A stretch of DNA of 64,000 nt from Voacanga thouarsii. Its lineage: Eukaryota; Streptophyta; Magnoliopsida; Gentianales; Apocynaceae. A program made the position numbers and the translations under genes. Shown in pieces: positions 14,648 to 63,907 of the stretch; the stretch's first letter is position 1; each line of letters opens with the position of its first letter. The notes under the pieces are model-generated. The model saw only the letters and a program-made list of their open reading frames with translations, was not told the origin of the DNA and searched no databases. The stretch is from NCBI GenBank assembly GCA_026120185.1, contig JANUWF010002200.1, forward strand, positions 4,028,001 through 4,092,000. The letters run 5' to 3'.

Positions 14648-15010
14648 TTAGCACTTTGGTTTTTTTGTCCTGGGAACATGAACTAGAGTAACCTCCAGGA
14701 AATGCTGAAGTAGCCCTTTTACCTCCTGTAACTTACTCGAGAGCAACGGGTTAGCACATTTATAATCTCCTACTACTTGTCGGATAACCACTTGTGAATC
14801 ACCTACAATTCTGACAACTCGAGCTTCCAGTGTTTTCAGGATCCGAAATCTTAACAAAAGGACATCATATTCCACCTGATTATTAGTTGTCCCCTTCTTT
14901 AACTCAAAGTGGACCTTGCCCTGCTGTCCGTTCGGAGATTCAAGGACCAGACCAATACCAGCCTTCTGCTGGGTACTTGAGCCATCAAATTGTAAAACCC
15001 ATGGTTTCAA
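14648..15010 (-). pseudogene. Tat element second (archaeal-type) RNase H
   Basis: WVLQFDGSS, NNQVEYDVLL and RIVGDSQVV carry the acidic D-E-D pattern of the extra RNase H that Tat elements hold between the ordinary RNase H and integrase. The reading frame is open for 120 codons and then lost before integrase. Its presence is the main reason for the lineage assignment. Confidence 0.8.
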
Positions 15011-15059
15011 AGAAATGTACCTCTGCGGCTTGTCTCCAGCTGTTTGTGGTATCTCCAGA

Positions 15060-15540
15060 GAAGGATGTTCAGCTAAAAAATCTGCAACAGCTTATCCTTT
15101 CACAGCCCTCAGTGGCACATAAGTTAGAGAAAAAGCATGTAGTTTGACCGCCCAGTTCATAAGCCGCCCATTCAGTAAAGGGCGATTCAACAAAAGTTTG
15201 ATTAAATCTACCTTACATAGGATATGTACCTCCCTAAATAACAAGTAATGCTCTAGCTTTGTGCATGCATAGTGAAGAGATAAGCATAGCTTTTCAATAG
15301 GGATGTACCTGGTCTCCGTATCCGATAGATTTCGACTAAGGTAATATACTGCTCTTTCTATCCCTTGCTGGTCATCCTAAGCCAATAAACTGCCGATAGA
15401 TCCTTCTATAGCTGATATATATAACTTCATGGGGGACTGGTCATGGGGAGGAGCTAACACCGGTGGATGTGATAAAGCTACCTTTATTTGCTCAAACGCC
15501 ATCTGATGCTCAGGCTGCCAGATAAACTCTTGAGATAACT
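15060..15540 (-). pseudogene. Tat element retroviral-type RNase H and connection, decayed
   Basis: Translated fragments of the ordinary gypsy RNase H are visible in shifting frames. They include a YYLSRNL-type segment, IPIEKLCLSL, a YACTKLEHYLL segment and VADFLAEHPS near 15060-15090. In-frame stops interrupt it. It continues directly from the reverse transcriptase. Confidence 0.7.
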
Positions 15541-16688
15541 TTAAACGTAACAAGGAAGAAAATACCTTCGTTTACCTGCAGCGTTTGCCAAAAAATGCCG
15601 TAAAAAGTTTATCTTCCCCAAGAAACTTTGTAGCTCTTTCTTCGTCTGAGGTGGTCTTGCCTGTAGAATATCTCGGGCCTTATTCTGATCTATTTCAATC
15701 CCCCTCTGGTGTACTAAGAACCCAAGGAAATTCCCAGCCGTAACTCCAAAGGCACATTTAGCTGGATTGATCTTCAAGTGGTGTTGACGCATATGGAGGA
15801 ATGCTTGTTGCAAATCAACTAAGTGTTGTAGGAACATGGGGGATTTGACGACCAAATCATCTATGTAGACTTCCATGGTGTTGCCGATAAGGTCGTGGAA
15901 GATAAGGTTCATAGCCCGTTGAAAAGTGACCCCAGTGTTCTTCAAATCAAATGGTAAAACCACCCACTCGAATAAGCCGATAGACCCAGAGCAACGAAAC
16001 GCTTGTCTTGTGTGTGTCCTCTTCCGCTATGAATATTTGGTTATACCACTGAATAACCATCCATGAAGCTCAAAAGCTGGTTACCGCAGCGAGAATCCAC
16101 TAACATATCTGCCATTGGCATTACATACTCATCCTTCGGCGTGGCCAAGTTTACGTTTCTAAAGTCTATGCAGACACGTAGTTGACCGTTCTTCTTAATG
16201 ACCGGCACAATGTTAGATATCCATTCTGCATACCGGCATGTACGGATGAACCCGCACCGGAGTAACATTTCTACCTTCTCCTTGATCATGGGTAGTAATG
16301 CAGGATTGAAACGTCTTGCAGGTTGCTTATGGTGCTTAAAACCTTCTTTCACAGGTAGGCGATGTTCCACAATACTTCGGTCCAAACCGGGCATCTCATG
16401 ATAGTCCCACGCAAAGCAGTCTTTATACCTGCGGATCAAACAGGCTATCTTATCTCTTTGCTCGATAGTCAAATGTAAACTCACCTTGGCTGTTCTGTTC
16501 TCCCCTGCTTCTCCCATGTCGACTTCTATTAACGGATCTTGAGCAACAAAGCCAGGAGCTCGTCGGACCTCCGGATCTTCAGGCCGTAGTCTGCTTGGTT
16601 CCTCAGTGGGGATCAAATTATGGGCCATCATTAGCTTAGCATATTGGCTTGGATCAAAAGTCGGATGATAAAACAAAGCTTCGTTCAT
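15541..16688 (-). pseudogene. Tat element reverse transcriptase
   Basis: The N-terminal part (16688-16041) contains ISNIVPVIKKNGQLRVCIDF and the PKDEYVMPMADMLVD segment. The palm motif YIDDLVVKS is in the second part (15963-15541), followed by GVTAGNFLGFLVHQRGIEID. A frameshift or stop between about 15960 and 16045 splits the domain. The enzyme copies element RNA into cDNA; the break implies a dead copy. Confidence 0.9.
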
Positions 16689-16748
16689 GTGAATTTTGGC
16701 TGAAAACGGATTAGGATCGACTGGGATTTGCTCTACCCGTTCTCCATC

Positions 16749-17204
16749 CTAGATCAGCATCATCTGGTGTAAAGTGGACAGTACGCAACGGTTTGCATGA
16801 ATCCAGTCCCTGCCCAATAAAACGGAATAGGCTGGCTTTGCATTAATTATAAAAAAGACCGTTTTACTGGTTTTGGACCCGACTGTGACTTCACAAGTGA
16901 TAACACTTTCTGCCGCAGCTGCTTCTCTAGTGAAATTAACCATCTGTACATCAATAGGGGATAAATCCAACTTATCTTTTCCCAGCCATTTCAAGGTAGA
17001 GAAAGGCATTATGTTTAAAACAGCTCCACCATCAACAAAAACCCGAGTAAGTGGCTTGCCATTGACATGTGCCTTGATATACAGAGGTCTGAGGTGGTTG
17101 ACATTTTGGGCTGTCAGAATAGGAAAGAGCATCCCCTTTGGGGGAAGTTGGACATCTACCAGCTCCACCGCGGCTCTTTCTTCCGCATGAAAATCCTCTT
17201 CCAT
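16749..17204 (-). pseudogene. Tat element aspartic protease
   Basis: The catalytic loop VFVDGGAVLNIMPFSTL is followed by a VLLGRDWIHANRC segment, as in plant gypsy proteases. The open stretch is 151 codons and is separated from the reverse transcriptase by an in-frame stop near 16749. It would cut the gag-pol polyprotein. Confidence 0.88.
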
Positions 17205-17291
17205 GGATTCCTAACGAGAGGTAGCACGGAAACTTGATGGCAAGATGTTGAGCATATTTTGGCCATTATCAGAGGCTAGTTGTTCTTCAAC

Positions 17292-19268
17292 CTAGGCATC
17301 AATCAGTTGCCTCTGTTGTGCCTGCTTCCGCTGCTCCCGTCTTTTTTGAGACTTTGATAGCCAGGAACAACAACCAGACAGAAATGTCTCCTTTTGGGAA
17401 ACCTGCACTGTTAGTTTCCCTTCTTTGCCATGAAAATGTGCTGCAAAAGAGGGAGGAGATAAACAGGTAAACATTGACGGTTTACCATCCAATCTCTGGA
17501 ATGCTTGCTCTATCCCCTCAGGCTTGTTGTTTCCTATATGCTCTTGTTGTTTCCCACAGATTGTTTGCAGCATGTGTGCATCAGCTAACGGAAATGGATT
17601 TGTGTCTACCAAAGTTTCTTCCTTTTTGTCTGCAAACTTCAATCTTCCGTCCTGGATAGCCTTCTGAATGATGTTCCTGAAGACAATACAACTGTTAGTA
17701 CTATGTGAGAAAGAGTTATGCCATTTACAATACCTTTTTCCTTTCAATTCTTCTGGGCTGGGGATCTTGTGTCCATAAGCCAGACGAATCTGTTTATCTG
17801 CCACCAGTTGGTCGAAGATTTGTTCAGCTTTTGAGACGTCAAATGAATAGGAGGGTCCTGATGTGGCAATTTCCTCATTTCCTTTGCCGGGCTTTAAGTG
17901 AGGACACGTATAGGATGCACCCTTTACTAATTCCGCTGCCATTACCTCTATCGCCTGCTCTCCGTCTTTATCATTAGTGTCATCTATGACAGATATCATT
18001 GTCTGACCATGAGAGAACTTGACGGAATGCCTCTTCGCTTTCTCCTTGATCATCTCCTCTATTCTGATAGCGTGAGACAATAGCCGGGACAAATCCGAGA
18101 AGTCTTGGAGAATGAGTCGTTCTTTGAGCTATGGATGCATCCTGCTAATAGCAATTCTTGCGCATTCTGTTTCAAGCAACTGGGTTGTACATTTGGACTT
18201 AGTTTGCCGAAAACGTTCAATAAAATCCGCCACATCTTCTGATCCCTTTTGTCTTATGGCCAAAAGGTCCGCGATAGAAACTTTCGGTACTGGTTTAAAG
18301 AAGTGTTGGTGGAACATTCTCTCCATGTTAGCCTATGAGTATACAAAATTAGGAATTAGATTGGCATACCATGTGAAAGCTGCTCCTGTCAAAGATAACG
18401 AAAACAATTGTAACTTATGCCATTCATTGTTCCCCAACTCACCGCATTATGCTGTGAATCTCCCGATATGTTCTATGGTGGATTTGTTGTCTTCACCGGA
18501 AAATGTTGAAAACTCCGGCAGCTTGTAGCCTCGAGGAAGTACCGCCATGGAGTCTACCTACTCAGGGTAAGGTTTTTGGTATACGAGCCGGTCCCGTGAC
18601 TGTCGTCGGAATGTTTCCGCTCCCATATCCACCGGCTGGTACGGCTGTTGAAACTGAGATGAGGGAGTTGGCATGACGAGTCTGGGACCCTGTCTTGTAG
18701 ACGGCTCAGTACTTCTAATCCCTTACCCTGGGTTAGTCGCTGTGAGTACCGGATATGAAGGAGGGTAAGGAACAGAGTAATTCGGCTACCCCCAAAATGG
18801 CGACATGTTTCCCCTAACCAGGTTCGGAACTGTTTCATACGTTGACGGTAACCCTGTCAACGGGACTGGACTTCTGCCTGGAAATATTTCTGCTGGTAAC
18901 GTGTTTTGAGCTAACACTCCTGGAACTTGATGCCCCCCGGTAGCAGGGAAACCCATTTCTCTTCGCAGGAGGTGCACAGAGCCATGAGAGGGTGCACCAT
19001 CAGCCGATGGCACGAGGTATGCAGGTGCCATGTTTGTTCCTTGTGCATGGTACCCCGATGGCTGAACAACGATTTGCGCATTTTGCCTCTGCGCAAATTG
19101 TTGAAGCTCATTCTGAAGTAGGGGTCGAAAAATAGTAGCGAATTGTGAAATAAGTCCCTGTAAGAGTTCGCCAGTACATTGTTCCATAGTATGTCGAATG
19201 GCAGTCAATGAGGTGGACATCGACTGAGATGCCGGTGGCGGGGGTGAGGACTGACCCCCTTGCTCCAC
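17292..19268 (-). pseudogene. Tat element gag, frameshifted
   Basis: An N-terminal open part (19268-18786) has a Pro/Ser-rich start and the segment CTGELLQGLISQFATIF. The capsid-like core is in another frame (18326-18129: RMFHQHFFKP, DLLAIRQKGSEDVADFIERF). The C-terminal part (18092-17292) holds the Tat zinc-like motif CKWHNSFSHSTNSC and a FRNIIQKAIQDGRLKF segment. At least two frame changes lie between 18786 and 18100. The protein would form the particle that packages element RNA. Confidence 0.88.
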
Positions 19269-19429
19269 AGAAGTACCCTGAGTACAACTGGTAGTAGTAA
19301 CTGAAGGGTCGAAGACTCCTCGGAGAGCACGAACTGGGGGTCGCTCAGATATCTCCGGTGCCTGTGGCTACTGTGAGTTGTTTGCCATTGCTCGTCCTGA
19401 CCGCAATAGCATGCGAATACTAACCTCAG

Positions 19430-19447
19430 GTCCCACTGAGCGTGCCA
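19430..19447 (-). other. Primer binding site of the Tat element
   Basis: Five bases inside the right-hand LTR, the minus strand reads TGGCACGCTCAGTGGGAC, starting with the TGG expected opposite a tRNA CCA end. The second Tat element has a similar TGGTATGCCTGGTGGGAC at the same place. I do not assign the tRNA. Confidence 0.75.
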
Positions 19448-19452
19448 ATCTG

Positions 19453-20157
19453 TGTTGCTGTCAAAATAGGGAGCCGATGCAAACGGAGATCGGCTTCGTA
19501 TCCGATAAACACAAACGATCCGATATGGCGTAACAGAAAATAGTATCAGATCTTTTTTTAATTAGGGATCCGGTTCCTTGAACTTACTATAGAAAGGGTT
19601 CAAGAAAGTCAGCTGAGAATGCTAAACGGAAAGCCTTTTCTGGGAAAATGGAATAATACTTGTATTAACCTGCTTAATGGAAGGTATAGAAAAAGTCTGA
19701 TATTGAAAAATGCGAACAGGAAGCTGTAAGAAAAACTGTAAACAAAGCTTGTAAAGAAAAGTTATAACAAAGCAGTAAGAAAGCCGTAAGGAATTGAGAT
19801 CTTAGACTAGAAAGTTGTAAATGATGACGAAGTAAAAGAAATCGAAATTGAATATTGCTGGTTGATAGTTTGATTCTCTTCAGTTCTGGGTGATGCTCCT
19901 CATTTTATACTTGCTGCAAACGAGCCACCGACAGATCGTGAAGTTTCTTTTAGCCAAAGAATACTCCCACCGGTCGTGCAGGATTCTTATGCCAAAAGAT
20001 CAGGAATTTGTTTTCTTTCTTATCGGTTCCGTGGTATCGATGTTGACCATGGCTATCGGCTGCTTGAACGGTTGACTTTATCGGCTCGTCCCAATTTATT
20101 CAGTCAATATCGATTCAAAGTAACCGTTATATCGGCTCGACAGAGTTGACGTCAACA
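19453..20157 (-). repeat. 5' LTR of the Tat element (right copy)
   Basis: It begins TGTTGCTGTCAAAATAGG and ends GACGTCAACA on the plus strand. It is 705 bp, like its partner. The minus-strand TATAAAA at 19903-19909 is the probable core promoter for the gag-pol transcript. The duplication CTTAT follows at 20158-20162. Confidence 0.95.
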
Positions 20158-23790: not shown

Positions 23791-23892
23791 GCATTAGATT
23801 TTGGGTTGATTTATAGAAATTAAGCTAGATATGCGGCAAAACATGTCCGATTATCTTCAAATTTGGTCATAATACATTTTTTTAGCAAATCT

Positions 23893-24760
23893 AATAAATC
23901 TAACGTTTGGATCGATAATATGATATGCTTATCTTTGTAAATGCGTTAGGTTTTGGGTTATAATGATTATGTAAGATTATGTGGTAAAATATATATGATT
24001 ACCTTCAAATTTTTAGGTTTTGGGTTATAATGATTATGTAAGATTATGTGGTAAAATATATATGATTACCTTCAAATTTGGTTATAATATTTTTTTTAGT
24101 AATTTTATCAAATCTAACGGTTGGATCGTTAATTTGATATGTCTATCTTTTTAAATATATAAGGTTTTGAGTATTTTTATTGAGATTATGTTAGATTATG
24201 TGGTAAAACATATCCAATTACTTTTAAATTTAATTACAATACCTTTTTATTAATTTTATCAAATTTAACGGTTGGATCATTAATTTGATATGACAATCTT
24301 TCTAAATGTGTTAGGTTTTCAGTATTTTTATAGTGATTATGCTAGATTTTGTAGCAAAATATATTTGTTAGATTTAAATTTGGTCATAATACTTTTTTTA
24401 ATAATTTTATCAAATTTAAAGGTTAGATCGTTAATTTGATATACTTATTTTTCTAATTAAATAAGTTAGGTTTCGAGCATTTTTATTAAGATTATGCTAG
24501 ATTCTGTGGTAAAACATATCCAATTACTTTTAAATTTATTCACACTACTTTTTTTTAGTGATTTTATCAAATTTAACAATTGAATCATCAATTTGATATG
24601 CCTATATTTCTAAATGTGTTAGGTTTTCGGCATTTGTATAGAGATTATGTTAGATTTTGCAGCAAAACATATATTATTACATTTAAATTTGGTCGTAATA
24701 TTTTTTTTAGTGATTTTATCAAATCTACGGTCGGATCGTTAATTTGATATGCCTATATTT
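23893..24760. repeat. About 152-bp tandem repeat, 6 copies
   Basis: Units start near 23893, 24109, 24259, 24412, 24569 and 24720, each with AAAT(C/T)TAACGGTTGGATCGTTAA (or a diverged form) then TTTGATATG. The first interval is about 64 bp longer because a segment starting TTTTGGGTTATAATGATTAT is itself duplicated in tandem. There are no open reading frames. Confidence 0.8.
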
Positions 24761-24761
24761 G

Positions 24762-24762
24762 T

Positions 24763-24821
<59 letters not shown>

Positions 24822-37689: not shown

Positions 37690-38020
37690 TTGCCTTATCG
37701 CCTGATCAGCAGGAGGAGAAGATGGAGTTTTGTTTGGTTCATTCAAAAAGCCTCTGCATGGGATGTGGATGGAATATTGTGAAGAGCTTAATTTCACTCA
37801 TTTGAGAAGAGAAACTTGTGACCATTTTGGACAACATATCACTTCTGTTTTTCCTTCAAGAATCTTTGTCTTGAACATGTCTGAAGGGTACTTTTTCATA
37901 CTATCTCCAGCGAACTTTTCTGGTTTCCCAAACAAGAACTCAATTGTTTCACCTATAACTTCCACCGCCCGCGGTCGTGGAAGCTTGCGATCATTATCAG
38001 GGTCATGCCCTATGCCCATA
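37690..38020 (-). pseudogene. P450 pseudogene copy A, second part of exon 1
   Basis: The minus strand encodes an [19 protein letters not shown] segment and MFKTKILEGKTEVIC, matching residues about 30-95 of the intact P450 at 6.28 kb. A frameshift follows [16 protein letters not shown] continues in another frame. Homology ends near 37690, at the segment matching the Pro-rich SDQAP. The upstream part of the same exon lies 2.6 kb away at 40655-40840, so the copy is broken by an insertion and has no later exons. Confidence 0.85.
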
Positions 38021-39753
38021 GGGTGACACGACAATACTTCAAAATGAAATGTCGAACCTCGAATATATACATAGTTATTTCTGCATAATCAATGCCTTTA
38101 AAACTTAGATTAATGACAGTTAGGTACAAGTCTCTTAAGTATAAAATAGAATTTAGAAAGATTAAAGCTTGACAAAATATAGTAACTCAAATTCATAACT
38201 TCAACAAACATTTTATACATAAGTGTACTAAAAAAAAAAAATCCGAACACCTGAGCTAAAGCTTCATTTGACAAATTACTCAAGATCTTCTTCAAACTGT
38301 TCATTTAATTCATCACCTTCTAACTAAAAGCCTGCAAAATGTTAAATAAAGGGCAAGCTCACTAAGAAAAAGTGGATCGGCTAGAATTGAGTATATTACA
38401 TAAATAAAAAATTTCAAAAGTTGATGGCACAAAGAATTACACACTCATGAATCTTTTAGCAAAATCGTTTGCATTTCAAAAACATATGACTCTAGATACT
38501 GGATCCAAAGAGATAATAGAAATAAAGGTGAGATGGCGAAGTTCAATCAGGAAAAAAAATTCATTCAAGAAAGGGGTGGCATTACCTATTTCAAGGGAAA
38601 CGATGCTACTTGTCCCAACTATGATAGCCGCTGGAAAATAGAAAGGAAACGATGCTGCTCAAGGCAAGCTAAACAGCACTTCTAGGTCAAAGAAACCTGA
38701 ATGACTATAGCTTCGGAGAGGAGGCGCCACTTGGTTTCTTGTGTATGTCTTCCAGGCACAAATTTCAACAATTACTAGAATTTTTCTAATACATCCATCA
38801 CAAGAAACAACAAGGATACAGAATAGGAATTCTAAAACCAATTTCAACAAACGAACCAAGATCAAAGGAGCAATAACAACAATCATATTAAATCATCAAA
38901 TCGAGAATAAAGGAATCATAACAAGAATCATAAACAAACTATGAGAACTTGGGCAAGAATTCCAGTACTAGAATGTATAGACCCTTCTAACTAACCATTA
39001 CCAAAACGTTCTTCTTTTTTTTTTTTGTCAAACTCAAAAATTTCCAATACATAGACTTCTTTTCTCAAAATTCTTAAAAGATTGCATATGAAAATTCACA
39101 ATAGACTTCCATAAGAGCTGAATCATGCTTTCTTTAACGCTAAAACCTTTCCCAAAATTTAAACACATCCAAAATATACAGATAGGTTGAATCATGTTTG
39201 GAGTAAGGTTGTGGCTAACTGATATCAATATCTTAACTATTGTATTCCATTAGGAGAGTGATTAGAATAGAGATTAGGTATTTTATCTCCCTAGATAATA
39301 ACCAGAGAACAGATAATTAGATATTATATCCCCCTAACTAAGGGTCGAGATTCATATAAGTTTGTAGAATCCCTACCATAACCACTTACAAGCATAAGAC
39401 AATCCTCAAAAATCAACTTCAGAACAGGATAGAAACTTCATACATTACCAATTTATAAACACACTTTGCAAAAACGTTAATCTCATATACATACATAACT
39501 TTTGAATTACATAAATCACAAATAGCATACTTAACCCAATTCATAATCAAAATATAACATTTTTATGAATTAAAAGCTATCAATTTCTAATAATGGGTAA
39601 TCGAAAATGCAGGAAACCACATATTCTTAATTACTAGATAATCTTGAAATTTTCTCTTACTTCTTCTGAATCCTCTAAACACTTACAAATCCCAAAATTC
39701 ATAAATTAAATTAGAATTCAGATATGATTGACTCTTCTCCCAAAAATAAATAC
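38021..39753. other. Sequence separating the two halves of P450 copy A
   Basis: I recognise no gene or complete transposon here. Short reading frames at 38447-38944 have an Asn/Thr-rich character but no named domain. Together with the MITEs at 39756-40542 it makes up most of the 2.6 kb that interrupts the P450 pseudogene exon. Confidence 0.45.
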
Positions 39754-44767: not shown

Positions 44768-44772
44768 GAAAT

Positions 44773-45044
44773 TGTTATAAAATTAGGGTAGTGTTAGAAT
44801 AAAATCTACACACTGCACACTAAGAAAATTCTAACTATTCTTTGCACAATAATTTCTCTTCAAACTTCTCTCTTTCTTTCTCTCACAATTCTTTCTCTAA
44901 TCTTTCTTTCACTAATCTTTCTTTCACAAAATGATGGTGTCTCCACTAAATGGTGGACATCCATAAAAATCTTCTAATAATTCACATAAATCCATAATTA
45001 GTGGAGCCTCCACTAATTAATGGAGATTCCAATAATTCATAACA
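44773..45044 (-). repeat. 3' LTR of the copia chimera (left copy)
   Basis: Starts TGTTATAAAATTAGGG and ends AATTCATAACA on the plus strand, 272 bp. It contains CT-rich CTTTCTTTCACTAATC repeats. Confidence 0.95.
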
Positions 45045-45053
45045 CTCCCCCTT
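45045..45053 (-). other. Polypurine tract of the copia chimera
   Basis: The minus strand reads AAGGGGGAG directly before the 3' LTR, a normal plus-strand primer. It sets the element's orientation. Confidence 0.8.
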
Positions 45054-45169
45054 GGATGTCCATCCATTACATAAAGAATATGCCTCGTTAAAACCTTACT
45101 AGATAAAAACCCAGTGGGAAAAAAAATCTAGTGAAGGAAAAAGAGTACACTATTCTATATGTTTGTTTA

Positions 45170-46861
45170 TTACTCCCCCTGATGAGATGATTCCTTTAAA
45201 TCTTTAAACCGACGCATACCGATTTTATATCTCAGTTTCTCAAATGTTGCAGTCGGTAAAGTCTTCGTGAAAATATCTGCGAAGTTGTCACATGACCGAA
45301 TTTGTAGCACATCAATTTCACATTTCTTCTGGAGTTCATGAGTAAAGAAGAATTTTGGTGAAATATGTTTTGTCCGATCTCCTTTAATATATCCTCCTCG
45401 TAATTGAGTTATGTAAGCTGCATTGTTTTCATAAAGAAGAGTTGGAATAACTTTGATTGATGATAATCCACAACTTTTTCGGATATAATGAATCATGGAT
45501 CTTAGCCATACACATTCTCGACTTGCTTCATGAATGGCTATAATTTCAGCATGATTTGAAGAAGTAGCTGCTATAGATTGTTTTGTAGAACGCCATGATA
45601 TAGCACTATTTTCACATGTGAATAGATAGCCCGTTTGAGAACGTGCTTTATGTGGATCAGATAAATAACCAGCATCTGCATAACCTATCAATGTTGGATT
45701 GGTTTTATTTGAATAAAATAATCCGAGATCAATTGTACCTTGGAGATATCGAATGACTTGTTTAATTCCATTCCAATGTCGTCGTGTTGGTGAAGAACTA
45801 AATCTTGCTAATAAATTGACAGAAAAAGTAATATCAGGTCGTGTATTATTAGCAAGATACATCAATGCACCAATTGCACTGAGATATGGTACTTCAGGAC
45901 CAAGGAGTTCTTCATCATTTTCTTGAGGTCGGAAAGGATCTTTATCCACATTTAATGATCGGACGATCATTGGAATACTCAATGGATGTGCTTTGTCCAT
46001 GTAAAATCTTTTTAGCACTTTTGCTGTATATGTTGATTGATGAATAAATGTTCCACTCTCCAGATGTTCAATTTGTAAACTAAGGCAAAATTTGGTTTTA
46101 CCAAAATCCTTGATTTCGAATTCTCTTTTTAAATAATCAATTGTTTCTTGGAGCTCTTCAGGAGTTCCAATAAGATTAATATCATCAACATATATAGCTA
46201 ATATCACAAATTTAGAACCAGATTTCTTAATAAAAATACATGGACATACCTGGTCATTTTTAAATCCCGCTTTCAATAAATATTCACTAAGATGTGTGAA
46301 CCACATGCGCCAGATTGCTTCGAGGCCATATAATGATTTACGCAACTTGATGGAGTAATTTTCACGAGGACAATGTTTATATGCTTCGGGCATATGAAAT
46401 CCTTCGAGGATTTTCATGTAAACATCATTTTCTAAATTTCCATACAAGTAAGTAGTGACAACATCTAATAGGCGCATATCTATCTTTTCATGTACTGCCA
46501 AACTGATAAGATATCGGAGTGTAATAGCATCAACAACAGGAGAATAAGTTTCATCATAATCAATACCTGGTCTTTGTGAAAAACCTTGGGCTACTAATCG
46601 CGCTTTATATCGAACGATTTCACTCTTTTCATTGCGCTTTCGCACAAATATCCATTTGTAGCCAACAGGTTTTACACTTTCTGGTGTTCGGACTGCAGGT
46701 CCGAAGACTTCACGTTTTGTCAGTGCATTTAACTCCGATTGAATCGCATCTTTCCATTGCAGCCAATCTTTTCTATGCCGACATTCATCAACTGATATTG
46801 ATTCAGGATTATCACTATCCTGTATAACATCAAGAGATATTATATGCAAACATATGATCAA
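45170..46861 (-). CDS. Copia reverse transcriptase/RNase H, open frame
   Basis: The frame is open for 563 codons. It opens with a WKDAIQSELNAL segment and VGYKWIFVRKRN, then RYKARLVAQGFSQRPGIDY and a TYSPVVDAITLR segment. The catalytic motif is AIYVDDINLIG. RNase H follows with GYADAGYLSDPHKARSQTGY, a SIAATSSNHAEIIAIHEA segment and NFADIFTKTLP near the end. This is the standard copia order after integrase. It stays open because the element is young. The first Met is arbitrary, since the domain is the C-terminal part of a polyprotein. Confidence 0.93.
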   Translation of the reverse strand: MIICLHIISLDVIQDSDNPESISVDECRHRKDWLQWKDAIQSELNALTKREVFGPAVRTPESVKPVGYKWIFVRKRNEKSEIVRYKARLVAQGFSQRPGIDYDETYSPVVDAITLRYLISLAVHEKIDMRLLDVVTTYLYGNLENDVYMKILEGFHMPEAYKHCPRENYSIKLRKSLYGLEAIWRMWFTHLSEYLLKAGFKNDQVCPCIFIKKSGSKFVILAIYVDDINLIGTPEELQETIDYLKREFEIKDFGKTKFCLSLQIEHLESGTFIHQSTYTAKVLKRFYMDKAHPLSIPMIVRSLNVDKDPFRPQENDEELLGPEVPYLSAIGALMYLANNTRPDITFSVNLLARFSSSPTRRHWNGIKQVIRYLQGTIDLGLFYSNKTNPTLIGYADAGYLSDPHKARSQTGYLFTCENSAISWRSTKQSIAATSSNHAEIIAIHEASRECVWLRSMIHYIRKSCGLSSIKVIPTLLYENNAAYITQLRGGYIKGDRTKHISPKFFFTHELQKKCEIDVLQIRSCDNFADIFTKTLPTATFEKLRYKIGMRRFKDLKESSHQGE

Positions 46862-47345
46862 TAATTGTTTCTATCCGATTCCAACTTCTACCGGAAGTGG
46901 TATAATGGATAGAAATTTCAGTATTACTTTCATTTATGTCTGGTTCTTTGTCATAAGTTTTCTCTTGGTCTTTATCATTCTTTGCTTTAATATGATCATC
47001 TGGACCATTAATCATCTCTTCTTTCGAGGATTTTTATCTTTAAAACCAAGAGGTCGGCCATGCTTCTGGCATGCTTTTGGCTCAGCAGCTATATGTAAAA
47101 TCTTTTGTTCTGTTGGAACTTCAATTAGCATAGGAGCATGTATAGCTGGCATATGCGATTTTGTTACTCTTCTAGAGTCAACAAAAGTGTCTGTCATTTG
47201 ATTTGCAATACTTTACAAATAAATTATCTTTTGAACTTCAAGTTCACACGCGCTTGTATGCGGATCAAGATAATTTAATGATGTTGTCCAATCACGATCT
47301 TTCTTGTACTGTTTCTGTTCTCCCCCTAATTTAGGGAATAATGAT
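46862..47345 (-). pseudogene. Copia integrase C-terminal remnant
   Basis: Fragments of the integrase-to-RT connection are visible on the minus strand. FPKLGGEQKQYKKDRDW and CELEVQKIIYL lie near 47345-47215. DSRRVTKSHMPAIHAPMLIE and a HGRPLGFKDKNPRKKR segment follow to 47012. The catalytic core of integrase is absent: copia homology stops near 47345, the left edge of the captured RKD segment. Confidence 0.85.
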
Positions 47346-47598
47346 TTCACAAGAGAATAAGAAAAGAAATATAAGAAAATGATGACAAGCAGGAAATGCC
47401 AAGAAAAATATCTCCTTTTTTTTTTCACTCTTTCCGGTACCGACTTTTCATCTTCCTCTCTTGTCTTTTCTTCTCATCCGACCCTCTACCTACCATCTAC
47501 CTCTTTTTCTTCCTCATACAGATATATATATATGTATCAATATATATCTCAGTTATCAGTCATTAGTAAACATCAAAAACAAAAATCACAAAGCAAAT

Positions 47599-49055
47599 AT
47601 GGAGACTCGTAATTCATTTGAGACATGGTCAAATTTTGACTCGGTTTCTGCAGCAGATGTTGATGTATTTTTCTTTCCAAACCAACCGCTTCTGCCTAAT
47701 TCAAACACAGAAGATTTTGATATGTTTTCCTTTCCAAACCAACCGCTTCTACCTAATTCGAACGCAGAAGATTTTGATATGTTTTCATTTTCAAACCAAC
47801 CGCTTCTGCCTAATTCGAACGCAGAAGATTGTGATATGTTTTCCTTTTCAAACCAACCACTTCCTCCTAATTTCAGGTGAGATACCTTTGAGGGGTTCCA
47901 TTTGTTTTTAGTATGCTTGATAATGAAATTAAACTCTCTTTTGGTTTGTTTTTTATGTAAATCAGTGGAAGTTTTGAACATACTGCTTTGGACCAAGTTG
48001 ATCTGCCCCTACAAGAGACTGCTTTTGATACTATTCCTCTTGATGCTATTCCTTTGCATGAGGATATGCTTGTGCATGATCTATTCTACTCTCTAATGGA
48101 TTTTGAACAAAGCCAGAATATGATTCCAGGTTATTATCCATTTAAACATGGATTTTGAATGGTATTACCTTTACTGATATTATTTTATTTTTCTAGGAGA
48201 AATAATGAGTGGTCTTGACAACGAAGTCGGAGTAAGTACTCATGAAATGCATAATATCGAAGTTCAAGATATTATTGCAGAAAAAATTCTTGGGGAGAAG
48301 AAGATGATTAAGAGGCAGAGAGAGAAGAAGGGCAATAACTCCTAGATACTATCAAGAGAAATAATTTCGCAATACTTTTACCTACCAATCAAGAGCGCAG
48401 CCAAAGAATTGAATATTGGCATAACCTGTCTCAAAAAAAGATGTAGGGAGTTAGGAATTTGTCGATGGCCTCACAGGAAGTTGGTGAGCTTGGAGACCAT
48501 AATTAAGAATGTTCAGGTTCTCTCTCATACATACTTATAATTTGCAAGTATGAAACTATGAAAGATTTATAAGTAAATAACTGATGATATCACTTCGATT
48601 TACAGGAGATGCAAAATAAAGAAGAAGGAGGACATATGGCTGAGAAGAAGTTGAAAGAAGCCATTGCGATACTGGAATGTGAAAAACAGTTGGTGGAAGA
48701 AAGTCCTAATACGCAGTTAGAGGACCAAACACAAAAATTGAGACAAGCATGCTTCAAGGCCAAATATAATAAGAAATTTAATTATAATAAATTTAAGGAG
48801 ATCATAAAATCTCAAGACTCATTTCGCAGTAATTTTACGGCTAATTCTGTTGCTAGTCTCGATGCTGGCTCAAAGGGGAAAGAAAAGGAGGAGGATGTCG
48901 AAAAAGAGGAGTTGAAGTCCATAATTACTAATTGTTTGTCTTCCTCTAATGTAAATATTGAAAAAGAACAATTACAAACCTTCATCTTAAATTTGTCAGC
49001 TCAATTACAAAAGAGCAACTATACGCATGTATCCTCAAGTTCATATGAACACTAG
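47599..49055 (+). pseudogene. RKD-type RWP-RK transcription factor captured in copia element, one internal stop
   Basis: Four exons join in frame: 47599-47876, 47966-48129, 48197-48516 and 48606-49055. All introns are GT-AG, giving 403 codons before the final stop. Exon 1 encodes a 19-aa repeat (core NQPLLPNSN) almost four times. Exon 2 is acidic (DQVDLPLQET, FYSLMDFEQSQN). Exon 3 holds the RWP-RK domain: ISQYFYLPIKSAAKELNIGI, LKKRCRELGI and CRWPHRKL (codons 198-254). Exon 4 is a charged helical tail. Codon 197, directly before the domain, is TAG (48343-48345); it is the only lesion I found. RKD proteins are nuclear DNA-binding regulators of egg-cell and embryogenic programmes. The gene lies antisense to its copia host. 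A truncated, read-through or re-initiated product cannot be excluded. Confidence 0.88.
47674..47870 (+). repeat. 57-bp in-frame tandem repeat in RKD exon 1
   Basis: Three full units and one partial unit each encode FxNQPLLPNSNxEDxDMFS (19 aa). Units differ at a few codons (TEDFD, AEDFD, AEDCD; last unit NQPLPPNF). The frame is kept in every copy. Confidence 0.9.
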
Positions 49056-49099
49056 TGATATGAATAAAAGACGTGATGCTTATTATTAATGGAAATATC

Positions 49100-49600
49100 T
49101 TTTTCCCTTATTATCTTTTATGTTCCACTTCAGGTGGCCAGTATTTCTCTGTGATAAGGGAAATATCGAGTGTGTCCATGACCATAACCACGGCCACTAC
49201 CACAACTACGACTATAACGATGGCTTCTGCTGGAGCCAACAGTATTCACTTCTGGGAGTGCTGTTGAGCCAGTTCATCTGGCTTCATAATTTCTCAATAA
49301 TAACTCATGTTAAAGCTGTCAATTTTGGATACGCTTTTTCTCCATAAAATTTTTAACTAAGATGTAGTTTTATACATCACGGAGTTCACGGTTTTACAAT
49401 CTTGCAACTTCAGGTGCAACCATTCATACCGTGCAGTGGGTAGTACGACCATCTTCAGGTGGTCAAATCTTTCTTTTTATCCACATGACATATGGATCTC
49501 CTTTTTTTAGCATTTAGATGCATTTCTGTATGACATATAAATTTTTTTTCAGAAATATCAAGGGTTACAAATTCGAATTTAGCGAGATCAATAAATGCGT
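49100..49600 (-). pseudogene. Copia gag remnants
   Basis: On the minus strand, KFEFVTLDISEK and EMHLNAK near 49580-49510 match the start of copia gag. NYEAR, TGSTALPEVN and a Ser/Arg/Gly/His-rich stretch near 49300-49150 match its C-terminal part. The middle of gag is deleted and stops are present. ACCTGAAG-type repeats occur at 49132, 49412 and 49455. The right edge of the captured RKD segment lies between 49056 and about 49120. Confidence 0.7.
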
Positions 49601-49628
49601 ACCTGTCTTCTGGCTTTAATAACGGCAG

Positions 49629-49646
49629 AGACTCGTGTTGATAACG
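49629..49646 (-). other. Probable primer binding site of the copia chimera
   Basis: Directly inside the right LTR the minus strand reads CGTTATCAACACGAGTCT. It lacks the usual TGG start but resembles the TTATCAGCACGAG-type sequence I associate with some plant copia elements. The tRNA is not assigned. Confidence 0.5.
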
Positions 49647-49918
49647 TGTTATAAAATTAGGGTAGTGTTAGAATAAAATCTACACACTACACACTAAGAA
49701 AATTCTAACTATTCTTTGCACAAGAATTTCTCTTCAAACTTCTCTCTTTCTTTCTCTCACAATTCTTTCTCTAATCTTTCTTTCACTAATCTTTCTTTCA
49801 CAAAATGATGGTGTCTCCACTAAATAGTGGACATCCATAAAAATCTTCTAATAATTCACATAAATTCATAATTAGTGGAGCCTCCACTAATTAATGGAGA
49901 TTCCAATAATTCATAACA
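49647..49918 (-). repeat. 5' LTR of the copia chimera (right copy)
   Basis: 272 bp, the same ends as the left copy, with four single-base differences by eye. It is followed by the duplication GAAAT. Confidence 0.95.
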
Positions 49919-49923
49919 GAAAT

Positions 49924-50690: not shown

Positions 50691-51240
50691 GTGTCAAACT
50701 GTGGTCTCTCGGAGACTTCAATAAGATTCTTGGAGGAAAAACAGTAATCATATGCGGTTCGAATTGGTAAAAAATTTAATCTTCTTCAATGATCAAAAGC
50801 TCTTCACAGCATGCTGCCCACAACCCACGCAAAAGGCTTTTCCAGCCATACCAAACTATGACCCTATCACCAAAAACAAAACGATAATATTCGCTTTTCT
50901 CCTGTCCCCCAACTATGACCGCCTGGGATCTCGGACTATGGGTGGCAATGGACATATGGTACAACCATCCATCAATTTTTGCCCCAAACTAGTCAACTGG
51001 GAGCTCAGGCAATGCCACCATTTGGACATACTGGGAAGTGGGTACCAAATGTTGACATTGTAAGGGGGACCAAGAATGTAGACGGGAAAAGATTATACTC
51101 GGTTAGCCATACTAGCTTTTTGTCTGTCCATAATTTGGTGAAGTACAATGGTAATTGTTGTTTCCTAATGGAAAAAGGTCATTAGAGATATGCTGCCAAC
51201 CCCAAAAGAAGGCCAACCTAATTGTCTCGTACATTGAATA
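50691..51240 (+). pseudogene. P450 pseudogene copy B, internally deleted
   Basis: The left part (about 50720-50850) matches exon 1 of the intact P450 around [10 protein letters not shown] and [17 protein letters not shown]. The right part (51064-51235) matches the C-terminus from GGPRM to the final [11 protein letters not shown] segment. Everything between is missing or replaced by about 200 bp I do not recognise. The heme-ligand Cys codon, TGC in the intact gene, is TAG at 51078-51080. Frameshifts are present in both parts. It is the third P450 locus of the window, in the same orientation as the intact one. Confidence 0.85.
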
Positions 51241-55000: not shown

Positions 55001-57487
55001 CAAGAACAATCAATGCACCTGTATAAAGGAGCATCTTTGAGAACGACAACATAGAGAATACCATAAATGAGGTAAACAAAGAATAAGAACAAGAAATGAC
55101 ATCAAATCGTTTAGCCCCACAAGATGACCACAAGTGAATAACGCTTTGCAACCAATTTTTCTGAAAGCAAACATGTCAGTTTCTTCATGTTAAAATATCA
55201 TTTATGATGAAATATAAAAAATAAAAAATAAAACCAAAAAGACACATACTATAAATCAATATATTCTAAGCCTTGTTTCCAAGATAGGTGATGTTGAATC
55301 AACCTATAAGAGAACAGCACCAAAATGATATAATTGATATAGTACATGAATCATCAGCAAAAACTCTGAGCTTTCGATTAACAATATAGCAGCATAAATT
55401 TGTACAAACATCACCAAACTCAAAACATCGGAAGCGTCATAGTGAGAAAAGGAAAAACAGAAACATTTATTATAGTGTACCATTTTGTGGATCCTCAATT
55501 GGAGACTCAAATGCACCAGGCGGAAGGGGGTCAAATTCAACACCTAGGGGAGGACCATCTTCCCGATAATGTCTACCAAGCTGCCTCTTAACTGAAGTAA
55601 TAGCAGGACTTTCAACTCGACCCTTCACTTTCAGATATCCAGATGGGCCAGTCCTAGCTTGCGCACCCTTCATCTCCATTGGGACACCCTGCATTTGGCA
55701 TCCCGCACTTGCAATTTTGAAAGGACCCTTATCAGATGGAACTAACATATTTTGCAGGGAAGAGCTACTTCCTGATGATGTATCATCAGGACGAACTGGA
55801 TTCCTAGTATGGTGACCACCAAGCTCATAATTGAAGTCAGCTGCAGAATGCTCTTGCGAAGTTAATCGTCTACTTTCAACTTCTCTGAGATCAAAATTCC
55901 TACCATCCCCTTGTTTGGTGCTACCACAAGAATCCTGCTTGAGTCCACTACCACGATCCTGTAGAATGGCACTAGAACGATCTTGTCTTCCATTTGCATT
56001 TGCTTCACCATTCAGTAACCTCTTATCCTTCAACCTTCTGTGACAAAACCAGCCAGAGACCTGCTTATCTGTCAAACCTATTGATTTTGCAAGTTGTTCT
56101 TTCATTGCCTCTGTAGGATATTTGTGGTCTGAAAATATACAACATTTATTCTTACTTCCAGTTTATGTAGGACAGATATGGCAAGAGAATACTGCAAGAC
56201 AAGAGACAACAGCAAAGTTCTTTTACCCTCATAAAATTTCTCCAGAGCTTCAACCTGAGCACGCGTTTTGACCGTTCTCTTCCTGTTCGTCTCTGGAGGA
56301 GTTTTATCCTCTTGGGAATGAGCTTCAGATGATTCTACAGCATCAGAAAACAATCAACGTTTAAGGGCGTGGCTTAAGAGAAAATAGGTGGACAAGAATG
56401 GTCAAAGTCCCTAATGTTGAAGACGTGGAAATAAACTCCAAAAACTTTTTGTAAATGGAGGGCATTTCCAAAGGTCCAAGATATGTAAGCAATCCTGAAA
56501 CCGAAACTGTACCACGTGACAGATTACCAAATGGCATCAACAATCATTGACCACCTATTTGACCATGGAAGGTGAAGCGGCGGTCAAGATCTGCCAATGC
56601 AAAAGAAGGGGGCAAACTAATTTACAAGGGAGCTGGACCCAACTGTATATGTAAAACTAAAGATGGACATTGGATGACAACCGAATATCTATATTAGGAC
56701 AGCAACTGGTTTTGTGGCCCTTATCTTATCATTGATATCATTCCTTCAAGCCCAAAATCCAAATCACGGAAAAGAGTTCCCCTTCGTAATTATACTTGAG
56801 GGGTGAAAAGAGCCCCTTGCAAGGAAAAGAACACAGAGAATCAAACAGAGAGACATGCACATTCAGTAATACACAGATGTCTAGTATAATCAGCCATAGT
56901 TACTATTAACATGAATTAAACTTCCTCCGGGGCAGAATCCCCTTTACAAAACTGAAACAAAACTCCCAGACTGCTTTTAGGTTTAGGTATGAAATCTGTT
57001 TAACTTCTGAAGCCTAAATCACAATGGCTACCGGTAGAACACAAACAAAGGGCAAATGAAAACCACATTCATATCCCTCAAACACATACAAACAAGATAT
57101 ATACCTTTTCTCGGCCAGGGGTACATTCAAATCAATAAAACGCCAAGATCTAAAACAAAGACAGTCGAGAAGAGATCAAACGTGAGTTTAAACCAAAACC
57201 CAGAAAGGATTTAAGACGACACGACTGTTAAAACATAAAACCCAGAAAAAATTTATCTTTTAGGAAGTCAGATTGTTGCTTCTGCGATTGAACCAAAGTT
57301 CTATAGTCATTTGAAAACAAAAACCCAAAATCAAACAATTCACAGAAATTTGTTTGTGAATTTGCAAGTAATCAACAGAAAACAAGACCTGCTAAAGCCC
57401 AAACGTTAAACAACATTAAAATTGAGTTATAATCTGAAACTGATAGAGAGAAGTAGAGGTGAAATTTTAAAAAATTATACCTTCCAT
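52052..57487 (-). CDS. Homeodomain-like transcriptional regulator (eight coding exons, 514 aa)
   Basis: Exons, in transcript order, are 57487-57481, 56334-56227, 56128-55481, 54706-54627, 53437-52976, 52885-52799, 52717-52638 and 52124-52052. All introns are GT-AG and all phases agree, with no internal stop. The homeodomain is at residues about 19-77 (RKRTVKTRAQVEALEKFYE to VSGWFCHRRLKDKR); W65, F66, R69 and R70 form the recognition-helix core. It resembles the RINGLET (RLT) homeodomain, but no DDT domain follows. The rest is hydrophilic and low in complexity, ending in an acidic EDDETAETSTSAD tail. It is probably a nuclear DNA-binding protein; targets are unknown. I think it belongs to a small plant family that includes Arabidopsis At4g03250, but that is from memory. 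The first coding exon is only 7 nt, followed by a 1.1-kb intron. Confidence 0.9.
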
Positions 57488-60400: not shown

Positions 60401-60972
60401 AAGTTAAAAAAAATTAATAATTAAAAATTGTGATTCGTGATTAAAATTAAAATTTGTATATTTAAAAAAAAATTAGTATTTAAAAATAAGTTTCATTACA
60501 TTGATAAATCAAACATAGTTAAAATAATAATAATTATTGTATGATTTTGATTACCATTTTTATTCTCAGTGTAAATTATACTAAAAATTTTACACTTGAG
60601 TAATTGGAGCTTCGTACGAGGATGTTACCATCCTCATATGTCACATGCACCCGTTATGATTAATGGGAAAAACTCCAACGAAACAAAAATGAAAAAGTTT
60701 TTGCGCAACATCCAGAAAATAATTTAGAATTTAGAATTTCGATTTTTTGTTTTTTGGTTTGTATCAGAACACAACATACAAGAAGGCAAAAATGGAAAAT
60801 GAAAGATAAGGCATTGCTGATCACAAAACAGCATGATGGAAGGATCACATGGAGGGATGCAAATGTCCAAGAAACCTTTCAGAAACCCAAATGACTTTTT
60901 GAAACAACACTACAAATGCAACCGCCTCTCTGAAGGTAACCAAAGCTTCAAGCTTTTGAGGTCAGGTAGAAG
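57488..60972. other. Divergent intergenic region between the homeodomain and J-domain genes
   Basis: The left end (57488-57720) includes the leader and probably the promoter of the minus-strand homeodomain gene, with CT-rich tracts. The right end (about 60790-60972) is the leader of the J-domain gene. A weak diverged repeat (AATAAATGAAGAG-CATTAC) occurs at about 58761 and 59330. A Stowaway-like end (CTTTCGTTCCGCGTCAACAA) is seen near 59209, but its partner is unclear. Nothing else is supported. Confidence 0.55.
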
Positions 60973-63907
60973 ATGCAAATCATGTTTCTCTGCCACAAAA
61001 CTTCTGTTTCAATTTCACCCCTTTTCCAGAAATCGCTCGAAAGCTCCAGTAACTGCGACTTTTCTCCCTTCACTTGTTCTTTTAGGTCTGCCATGAAAAA
61101 CCCACTTCATTTATTGTCCTCTTCTTCATCTAGGCTAAATTGCCAGTACAAAGATGACGAACCTCTTTCCACTTCTCTAGCTTATGATGTTCTTGGGGTT
61201 GCTCCTAATTGTACTTCAGATGAACTCAAGTCTGCTTTCCGAGCCAAAGTATGAAAATTTGCCCTTTCAACTTAATTCAATTGAAGATTGATTCCGTTTT
61301 TTATTTTAATTGCCATTTTTTTTGGTGGATTTCTTTTGATCATGTCATTTAACTTCCGAGGGATTTCATTTGAGTATGTTGATATTGGTTATGGGTTGTA
61401 CAGGTGAAGCAGTTTCATCCTGATGTGAGACTGGATAGAGGAAGTTCAGATATAATGATTCGTCGTGTAATTAAAGCATACGAGGTAATGAATGATTTCT
61501 CTAATGAAGCTCATTGAATTTTGTTCCTTTAATTCTCTTTCAGAATGATGTTACTATAGAAATAATCTCGCAGTCTTGATAGCACAAAAAGATTTTGGAA
61601 TGAATCCCAGAATATTGGCTAGAACTATTTATTGAATTAGGGTTAGGTTTCTTTCTGCAAGTAGTCCCAAGATCAAGAAGACTACGGTAGCTATAGGGAA
61701 TCAGATCACATAAGCTGGAGTTTGAGTAAACCGATGAATTTTCCTCGCAGGTGTATGGCTTAAATAGAATTGGTATCTTGCTAGTTTGCCTTTATGAAGT
61801 TCAGCAACAGTATGATGGCTTCTAATTTCTGTACTTTTAATCTCCGTCCACAGATTTTTTGAATAATTTCTGTATTCACTATGCTCATTTACAGAAGGTG
61901 TAGCATAAAATTGAAAAAATTTCTATCTTGATGATCAGATAGCTGACCACTCTGGTTTGGAAATGTGAGCAGATATTATCCAACTACAGCAGGCCAGAAA
62001 TTATTGAGAGGTATCCCAATAAATTAGCTTTCAAGCCTTGTACCGTATAAAAGGTTCTCTGTGCTGTCCATTCATCTGTTGATTCCTTCATCCTATGTCC
62101 TATCAGTAATGTCATATTGGCCATGGAATATTGTTACCAAACATTTATTAAATAATAAGCCAGATATTTCAGAAAGCAAAGAAAAATGCAAAAGTTTTTT
62201 AGCATTTGATTACTAATTCTGGTGCTACCAGCTAACCAAAACTATTCTTATGTTTTTAGTATTCTAGTTGTCACAATATATGTTTGCTTATGTATTCATG
62301 GATCATTATTTATCTGTTGTAGGGAATGCCAGGATCCCTTTGATGAACCAGAATGTGAAGCATTTGACCTTTTTGTTAATGAGACTCTTTGTATCGGTAA
62401 AGGTATCTATTTCTTTATGTTTCCTCTTTCCACGAAAAGCAATTTAATTGAAATTGGAAGTTGTCATTTTCTTCGAAGTCTTTTTCTTTACAAAAAATGT
62501 GATAATATTTCCATAATTATTTATTCATTTGCCTTTTCACAATAAGGAAGTGTAGCATAAGGCAGGAGAAGCTTTTTTACTATTACATTTGCAGTGGCCT
62601 AAGCTTCCCTCAAAAGTTTTGTATTATTATTTAGGTCCATTAGAGCATTCTACTCAGAGCCTGGATTTTATCTGACCCGGCTGAGCTATCCCATTGAAGA
62701 TTTCATTGCACTTCTGCACTTAAGTCGTGAAAATTAGTCCATAATTATGAAAGTGTGAAACGTTATAATATGAAGCCAAAGTTACTTTAATGTACTCCGC
62801 AAGAGGAAGGAGAGGATTATCCAATCAGGGTATTGACTAAAAGAAGAATGTGGCTAAGATCATTCAAATTTCTGGCCCAAATATGGCTATGTTTCAAGCG
62901 AAATTCTTTTGCAGTGATTTCTTTGTATCAAATTCATTATGCACTTGGAATCCTCCAAGAAGAACTCCATGATATTTTGATGTTGGTCATTTGCAGAGAA
63001 TTCTTAAATTGTTTGTTGTTTATGAACTGACCATAGTTTACACACTTTCTGAATGTGTGATTGTCAAGTATTTCATCCAAACACACTGGCCCTTTAATTA
63101 TTTCCTAACCATAAATGATGGTTGTCTCTAACATGTTTCACTGGAGGAACACTATCTTTAATTTTGAATTCCTTATTGAGGAAGTTGTTAGATTACATAT
63201 TTTCTAACGGGAAGAGTATAAGAACATAAATAAGGAACAAATCAAGTTCCTTGGAGAATTAGGTAATCAGGTTTTGGATCCTTCTGCAATTGTTGCACCT
63301 TTAGAATTACTTTTGGTTTCTCTGGTCTTGCTATTAGTCCCCTGATAGTTTCTATTAGTATTCCTACTTCAATATACCTTTTCTGTTCTTGACTTGCCAT
63401 TGGCATGAATTTTTATGCAGGCTGTCCGTATTCTTGTGTGAAGAGAGCACCTCAAGCATTTGAATTTTCATCTGTAAGGGGAACTGCCCATGCTACTTCT
63501 CAAGGTCGATGCTCCACCACCAACCTTGTCTAATCGTCAATTAACCCTTGATCTTCAACTCCCAGCCCAGCATAAAACAATATCATTTGTTATTTTGTTA
63601 TTTGAAAAAATTATTTACAACATATTGATAAATCCAAGAGACAACAAGAATATAGGAGACTTCACAATTGGTTCTTTCTTTAGATACCAGATTTTTAAGT
63701 ACTGGACTTTTCTAAATGAGTTGCCAAAGGAAAAAAAAGAAAATGTGCTTTTTTTCTGTTTTTTACTGTGACTTTGACATCTGAGTTTTTTCTTTAAGGG
63801 CATGGTGAAGATTATGAAGTACAGATTGCCATAGGTCAGTGCCCGAGGAGTTGTATTCACTATGTTACTCCTTCTCAAAGGCTCATTCTGGAAGAGCTGC
63901 TTGACAG
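60973..63907 (+). CDS. Chloroplast J-domain protein with ferredoxin-like domain, partial at the window edge
   Basis: Exons are 60973-61248, 61404-61484, 61973-62010, 62323-62402, 63421-63504 and 63799-63907; the gene continues past the window. Splice sites are GT-AG and frames agree. TAG at 60967 lies in frame just upstream, so ATG 60973 is the first possible start. Residues 1-60 are Ser-rich, like a plastid transit peptide. The J domain starts near residue 70 (LAYDVLGVAPNCTSDELKSA) and has the HPD motif (KQFHPDV). A Cys-rich domain follows with CIGKGCPYSC and QCPRSCIHYVTPSQR, the spacing of ferredoxin-type iron-sulfur domains with one ligand shifted. J-domain proteins stimulate Hsp70. The J plus ferredoxin arrangement matches the plant DJC76/77/82 group, probably the DJC76 type. 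An 87-codon upstream frame (60833-61096) overlaps the start. Confidence 0.9.

What the first reader, a model, noticed from the sequence alone, without database searches (positions are those of the whole stretch)
44773..49918. Young copia retrotransposon carrying an intron-bearing RKD gene in antisense orientation
The 272-bp LTRs (4 differences by eye) and the GAAAT duplication enclose gag remnants, a plus-strand four-exon RWP-RK gene, the end of integrase, and an open RT/RNase H. Element genes read minus, RKD reads plus. RKD introns are antisense to the element transcript, so they would not be spliced from the genomic RNA; this explains how an intron-containing gene could survive reverse transcription. 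RKD factors control egg-cell and embryogenic programmes (established, including a link to citrus nucellar embryony), so a mobile copy could matter for dosage or silencing. That the capture preceded insertion is inference from the intact target duplication.
Basis: partly seen in the sequence, partly recalled or inferred. Interest (0 to 1): 0.92.

Follow-up and report, generated by a model that had tools for sequence, protein, structure and literature searches.

The report
Jumping element spreading backwards RKD gene
A plant jumping element picked up a whole egg-cell regulator gene backwards, introns included, and copied it to roughly 2,500 places in one genome, an unusual case of a gene with introns surviving repeated copying through RNA.

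Summary
The window copy is a Ty1/copia element (272-bp LTRs, 4 differences, GAAAT duplication) with a four-exon RKD gene on the opposite strand, in place of gag zinc knuckle, protease region and most of integrase.

The own-genome search (1.35 Gb) settles movement. Six further complete copies fetched hold the same RKD at the same junctions, with their own target duplications; six complete sisters lack it. Whole-genome pattern counts: left junction 2,499, right junction 2,467, RKD-free junction 3,919; reversed controls 0. The unspliced exon 1/intron 1 boundary occurs 2,652 times; the spliced exon 1/exon 2 junction 0 times. So one antisense capture was amplified with introns kept.

Corrections: the window RKD has a premature TAG at 48343; most sampled copies are broken (8 of 35 open; 0 of 8 in a junction-chosen sample). 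The host looks like Gentianales, not citrus.

Open: the RWP-RK domain shows a modest sign of purifying selection among transposing copies (shared variants 9N:12S) while RT in the same family does not (125N:46S). This is suggestive only, but raises the possibility that the element uses its stolen regulator.

The parts
44768..44772 (.). target-site duplication GAAAT (left)
44773..45044 (-). LTR (3' LTR of the minus-strand element), 272 bp
45045..45053 (-). polypurine tract AAGGGGGAG next to the 3' LTR
   Evidence: name by recalled motif
45170..46861 (-). RT/RNase H reading frame, 563 aa
   Evidence: RVT_2 E=1.3e-54; 21 of 217 near-invariant columns altered
46833..47347 (-). tail of integrase, broken
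47347..47348 (.). left junction element/RKD, at the same place in 7 of 7 chimeric copies; 6 of 6 RKD-free copies continue into integrase instead
   Evidence: 2,499 genome matches
47348..47598 (+). about 250 bp of RKD 5' flank
47599..47876 (+). RKD exon 1 with in-frame 57-bp tandem repeats (47650-47872)
47877..47965 (+). RKD intron 1, GT-AG, 89 bp
   Evidence: boundary found 2,652 times in the genome
47966..48129 (+). RKD exon 2
48130..48196 (+). RKD intron 2, GT-AG, 67 bp
48197..48516 (+). RKD exon 3 with RWP-RK domain
48343..48345 (+). premature in-frame TAG, also in 2 others of 35 copies aligned
48517..48605 (+). RKD intron 3, GT-AG, 89 bp
48606..49055 (+). RKD exon 4 to the stop codon
49098..49105 (.). 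right junction RKD/gag, in a T/C-rich stretch shared with RKD-free copies
   Evidence: pattern found 2,467 times
49101..49637 (-). degraded gag, 72-84% identical to RKD-free sisters, with internal deletions
49647..49918 (-). LTR (5' LTR of the minus-strand element), 272 bp
49919..49923 (.). target-site duplication GAAAT (right)

Best explanation
This is one member of a non-autonomous LTR-retrotransposon family of about 2,500 copies that carries a captured host RKD gene, whole and with three introns, antisense to its own RNA. Shown: identical junctions in all seven complete chimeras examined, separate target duplications, LTRs that differ by 1-8 positions, RKD-free sister elements, intron retention throughout the sample, and no spliced exon 1/exon 2 junction found in the genome. 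Inferred: one capture event in an ancestral copia element replaced about 1.7 kb coding for the gag zinc knuckle, protease region and integrase core with an RKD gene and its short 5' flank, by DNA repair or template switching. Because RKD is antisense, the spliceosome does not see its introns in the element RNA, so they pass through reverse transcription. Packaging, reverse transcription and integration come from proteins of intact relatives. Individual insertions, such as the window's, then decay.
For: LTR query: 53 matches from 40 scored of 952 candidates, many in pairs about 5 kb apart. Of 18 stretches fetched, 12 held complete elements: 6 with RKD and 6 without. Exact 5-bp duplications in 5 of 7 chimeras (GAAAT, AGATC, CATTC, TTATC, AAAAA), one mismatch in the other two. 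Junctions identical in 7 of 7; RKD-free copies have 1,696-1,702 bp there against 1,638-1,754 bp. That stretch in sisters matches SH3_retrovirus, rve, gag_pre-integrs and Pol_BBD, and weakly zf-CCHC (below cut-off). Counts with up to 3 mismatches: left junction 1264+1235, right junction 1236+1231, RKD-free junction 1967+1952, unspliced boundary 1350+1302, spliced junction 0; all reversed controls 0. RKD segment: 40 scored of 3,397 candidates, 38 of them matching from position 1 to at least 1698 of 1743. All 35 copies aligned keep introns of 79-91, 67 and 89 bp; 31 of 35 with all GT-AG ends. RKD groups with Gentianales RKDs, SH-aLRT 96.
Against: The donor RKD was not identified: the intron-bearing relative read (L057) is only 72-92% identical over its matches. 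No RNA, packaging or transposition data. The spliced test covers one of three introns with 3 mismatches allowed and would miss diverged spliced copies. Junction counts include fragments and cannot say how many copies are complete. Two target duplications are imperfect, and L016 has 8 LTR differences and a further LTR piece beside it.
Confidence: 0.93

Rival explanations
1. RKD entered this resident element after its insertion and never moved with it.
For: It was my second choice before the genome could be searched; DNA repair can insert genes in any orientation.
Against: Identical junctions in 7 of 7 complete copies at separate sites with own duplications and about 2,500 junction matches.
Confidence: 0.01
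2. The RKD cargo is neutral baggage: the family spreads because its LTRs and RNA signals are good, and nothing selects for RKD protein.
For: Mean pairwise exon divergence 4.0% is not below intron 3.1% (595 pairs). 27 of 35 copies, and all 8 junction-chosen copies (exons 2-4), are broken. Shared-against-singleton contrast over exons 2-4 is not significant (P=0.13).
Against: RWP-RK part: shared variants 9N:12S against singletons 39N:16S (P=0.034) and against RT shared variants 125N:46S (P=0.010).
Confidence: 0.68
3. The RKD acts in the element's favour: its DNA-binding domain is kept working in transposing copies, perhaps by turning on element or germ-line programmes.
For: RWP-RK selection signal with no such signal in RT; 8 of 35 copies most like the window keep an open RKD frame.
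Against: Partition chosen after seeing the family; signal weakened from P=0.007 to 0.034 when 8 copies were added; no expression data.
Confidence: 0.25
4. The chimeric copies are an assembly artefact.
For: Reads cannot be inspected.
Against: Thousands of consistent junctions on many contigs, with different target duplications where complete copies were read.
Confidence: 0.01

Closest known systems
Bs1 of maize and LTR-retrotransposon gene transduction (672 captured genes in rice, 1343 in sorghum; 425 maize elements from at least 189 captures)
   Same: Host sequence between the LTRs of an element (passages of PMC3726574, PMC2774510, PMC7264820)
   Different: Bs1 is described as exons only (PMC4717578); transduced genes usually lie in the sense of gag-pol and in one or a few copies (PMC7264820). 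Here a whole gene with introns lies antisense in about 2,500 copies
Retroduplicated NLR genes inside LTR retrotransposons of pepper
   Same: Host genes amplified between LTRs
   Different: About 32% were multi-exon, all with fewer introns than the parent (PMC5664825 passage); here all sampled copies keep three introns
Antisense additional ORFs of Grande, RIRE2 and Retand
   Same: Frame antisense to gag-pol, conserved across many copies
   Different: Those lie between pol and the 3' LTR and have no host homologue (PMC7264820); here a recognisable RKD replaces part of gag-pol
RKD genes of Gentianales
   Same: RWP-RK domain; clade with Coffea, Cinchona, Oldenlandia, Catharanthus
   Different: Extra 19-aa N-terminal repeats, eroded conserved sites, location inside an LTR element

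Membership tests
Ty1/copia LTR retrotransposon | LTR pair with TG...CA ends and 5-bp duplication | tested here: met
Ty1/copia LTR retrotransposon | copia-type RT, integrase upstream of RT | tested here: met
Ty1/copia LTR retrotransposon | gag | tested here: met
   remnant aligns to sister gag, Retrotran_gag_2 in L014
Autonomous element | complete gag-pol | tested here: not met
LTR-retrotransposon gene transduction | host gene between LTRs of one insertion | tested here: met
LTR-retrotransposon gene transduction | chimera moved as a unit | tested here: met
Retrogene through spliced mRNA | introns lost | tested here: not met
Functional RKD gene (window copy) | open frame through the DNA-binding domain | tested here: not met
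   TAG at 48343
RKD subfamily | RWP-RK domain and grouping with named RKDs | tested here: met
Pack-type DNA transposon | inverted repeats and duplication at the gene edges | tested here: not met
Cargo gene selected for the element's sake | purifying selection in transposing lineages | tested here: inconclusive

The most novel reading that the evidence does not exclude
A retrotransposon has traded its integrase and protease for an egg-cell transcription factor and keeps that factor's DNA-binding domain working because it helps the element multiply, for example by creating or prolonging a germ-cell state in which LTRs are active; antisense orientation lets the intron-bearing gene, with its own 5' flank, survive the RNA stage thousands of times.
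Probability: 0.25. Interest if true: 0.93.

Novelty: new variant of a known kind. Interest (0 to 1): 0.82.

Why it matters
Gene capture by LTR retrotransposons is usually described as sense-oriented, exon-only and low in copy number. Here an intron-bearing gene passed repeatedly through an RNA stage because it sits antisense, on the logic of laboratory retrotransposition reporters (recalled), and reached about 2,500 copies. Surveys that use intron loss as the mark of retroduplication would miss it. The cargo belongs to a family tied to egg-cell identity and somatic embryogenesis (recalled; CitRKD1 seen in a search listing), so it makes two questions testable: whether elements can recruit germ-line regulators, and whether thousands of antisense RKD transcripts silence the resident RKD genes.

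Tried and rejected
Native RKD locus flanked by unrelated LTRs: rejected. Citrus host: no row named Citrus among the 120 listed representatives for P450 or RKD (some rows are unnamed), and trees. Retrogene: rejected. DNA-transposon carriage: no repeat ends beyond chance. Viral-contig scans for RT and RKD exon 4: no relative. Rfam at gathering scores: none. PDB for RT: none. Pfam over 15 minus-strand pieces of 47300-49646: no element domain; no CCHC motif.

Indirect decay test made before the genome answered: RKD 7 of 55 and RT 21 of 217 near-invariant columns altered (120 relatives each: maxima 3 and 13), P450 control 0 of 176; excess over LTR divergence 4.6-fold, P=0.001. Against it: at columns identical in all 120 relatives RT has 1 of 45 altered, expected 0.73, and with upper-limit LTR divergence P=0.024 for RKD and 0.11 for RT. 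It is now only supporting.

A cryptic 114-bp intron (48232-48345) that would remove the TAG: possible, untested. Literature: no held paper contains RWP-RK, RKD and LTR retrotransposon; none all of LTR retrotransposon, captured, transcription factor gene, high copy, antisense, non-autonomous; one holds the intron/antisense/capture set and its passages concern other elements. This covers only the held open-access library.

Script flaws: one search's last part printed nothing; one search missed loci on the other strand (redone, where two cuts, L032 and L034, were over-long); mis-set the LTRs of L016 and L018 (redone).
Full report
The window copy. The element runs from 44773 to 49918 with 272-bp LTRs (4 differences, GAAAT on both sides) and reads minus. 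Inside lie degraded gag, an RKD gene on the plus strand, the tail of integrase, and an open RT/RNase H frame. The RKD has four exons and three GT-AG introns (89, 67, 89 bp) in one frame of 403 codons, interrupted by a TAG at 48343 directly before the RWP-RK domain. At that place 80 of 120 relatives have K and 29 R; in the seven copies it is TAG in two and begins CA in four.

The host. A CYP716-type P450 at 6277-8529 is 82% identical to a Cinchona protein over its full length. In a 36-row tree it lies in a starred set of 10 rows that also holds Ipomoea, Solanaceae and Lithospermum, nearest by path to Cinchona and Coffea and paired with Calotropis at 90. The RKD lies with Coffea, Cinchona, Oldenlandia and Catharanthus (SH-aLRT 96) on a long branch, 0.81, against 0.77 for Catharanthus. 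The host is most likely a Gentianales plant; the family is unresolved. The assembly has 1,345,666,469 bases in 1,848 contigs.

Other copies. The LTR finds 53 matches (40 of 952 candidates scored), many in pairs about 5 kb apart. I fetched 18 stretches. Twelve hold complete elements: six with the RKD (L009, L011, L012, L015, L016, L019) and six without (L010, L013, L014, L017, L018, L020); the other six are partial or single-LTR stretches. With the window that makes seven complete chimeras. Five have exact 5-bp duplications, all different; two have one mismatch. LTR differences are 4 (window), 2, 1, 2, 2, 8 and 1; the RKD-free copies have 0 in five cases and 1 in the sixth. RKD-free duplications are exact in five of six; L018 abuts another LTR piece and shows none.

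Junctions. All seven chimeras leave element sequence at the same base, 47347, and re-enter gag in a T/C-rich stretch at about 49098-49105. All six sisters continue with integrase at the first place, and carry 1,696-1,702 bp where the chimeras carry 1,638-1,754 bp of RKD. In sisters this stretch matches SH3_retrovirus, rve, gag_pre-integrs, Pol_BBD and, below cut-off, zf-CCHC. So one capture replaced about 1.7 kb of gag-pol. Against the window, sisters are 94-97% identical in RT and 97-99% in LTR, but only 81-88% in the integrase tail and 72-84% in gag; the other chimeras are 94-97% in RT and 90-98% in the integrase tail. This suggests that chimeras and sisters exchange LTR and RT by template switching; that is inference.

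Copy number and introns. With up to three mismatches the left junction occurs 2,499 times, the right junction 2,467 times and the RKD-free form of the left junction 3,919 times; reversed-pattern controls are 0. About 39% of left junctions are therefore of the RKD type. The unspliced exon 1/intron 1 boundary occurs 2,652 times, the spliced exon 1/exon 2 junction 0 times. In 35 aligned copies, all keep the three introns (79-91, 67, 89 bp), 31 with all GT-AG ends. The RKD introns thus survived an RNA stage, best explained by their antisense orientation; this is the natural counterpart of reporter designs (recalled).

Is the RKD selected? Most copies are broken: 8 of the 35 copies most like the window have an open frame, and 0 of 8 copies chosen by their exact left junction have exons 2-4 of normal length and free of early stops. 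Exons diverge at least as much as introns (4.0% against 3.1%, 595 pairs). Yet variants shared by at least two copies, which arose in transposing lineages, are poor in replacements in the RWP-RK part: 9N:12S against 39N:16S for singletons (P=0.034), with P=0.002 against a neutral expectation. RT in the same family shows 125N:46S shared and 199N:70S single, no difference (P=0.91). The rest of exons 2-4 shows no contrast (P=0.52), the whole of exons 2-4 P=0.13, and before eight copies were added the RWP-RK contrast was P=0.007. The domain split was made after seeing the data. I treat this as a lead.

Wider RKD expansion. A Cinchona RKD finds 245 matches in this genome (126 of 7,219 candidates scored), including many single-piece, decayed copies that look intron-less and many intron-bearing ones. 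One intron-bearing relative (L057) shows no stop inside its exon pieces and is 72-92% identical to the element's RKD over its matches; L060 is intron-less and decayed. Whether those lie in other elements was not examined.

Against what is known. Passages that I read say that transduced genes in plant LTR retrotransposons usually lie in the sense of gag-pol, in one or a few copies (PMC7264820), that Bs1 and gene-carrying TRIMs hold exons only (PMC4717578), and that multi-exon genes inside pepper LTR elements all had fewer introns than the parent (PMC5664825). Captured genes as such are common (PMC3726574; PMC2774510). An antisense, intron-keeping capture at about 2,500 copies is a new variant of that kind, of high interest.

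Noticed in passing
G000; L057-L060: RKD-like sequences are widespread in this genome outside the chimera sample: many look intron-less and decayed, many intron-bearing. RKD seems amplified in more than one way.
   Followed up: partly
G000:C198:1600627-1605463: Tandem array of at least five copies of the 3' part of the RKD segment (query 1073-1698).
   Followed up: no
L019, L020: A second LTR form of 357 bp occurs in one RKD-carrying and one RKD-free copy, so both kinds share LTR variants.
   Followed up: partly
9252-20083: Another LTR-type element: direct repeats 10.2 kb apart (93-94%), minus-strand pol (rve at 13345-14202) and a plus-strand 447-codon frame at 11836-13176 without Pfam match.
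   Followed up: partly
37801-38088 (-) and 50773-50840 (+): Pieces resembling exon 1 of the P450 at 6277-8529 (by eye).
   Followed up: partly
48232-48345: The premature TAG also makes an AG acceptor at the end of a 114-bp stretch that begins GTAAGT; splicing there would keep the RWP-RK frame open.
   Followed up: partly
47650-47872: In-frame 57-bp tandem repeats in RKD exon 1; their number varies between copies (exon 1 shorter by 57 or 114 bp in three of seven copies).
   Followed up: partly
46286-46339: RT motif KQSGRMW of relatives reads EAIWRMW here, like a compensating +1/-1 indel pair.
   Followed up: partly
23879-24764: Diverged tandem array of about 151-bp units next to a long AT-rich tract.
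   Followed up: no
55473-56162 (-) and 60970-61251 (+): Nearby host genes: a homeodomain match (E=2.3e-11) and a DnaJ match below cut-off.
   Followed up: no
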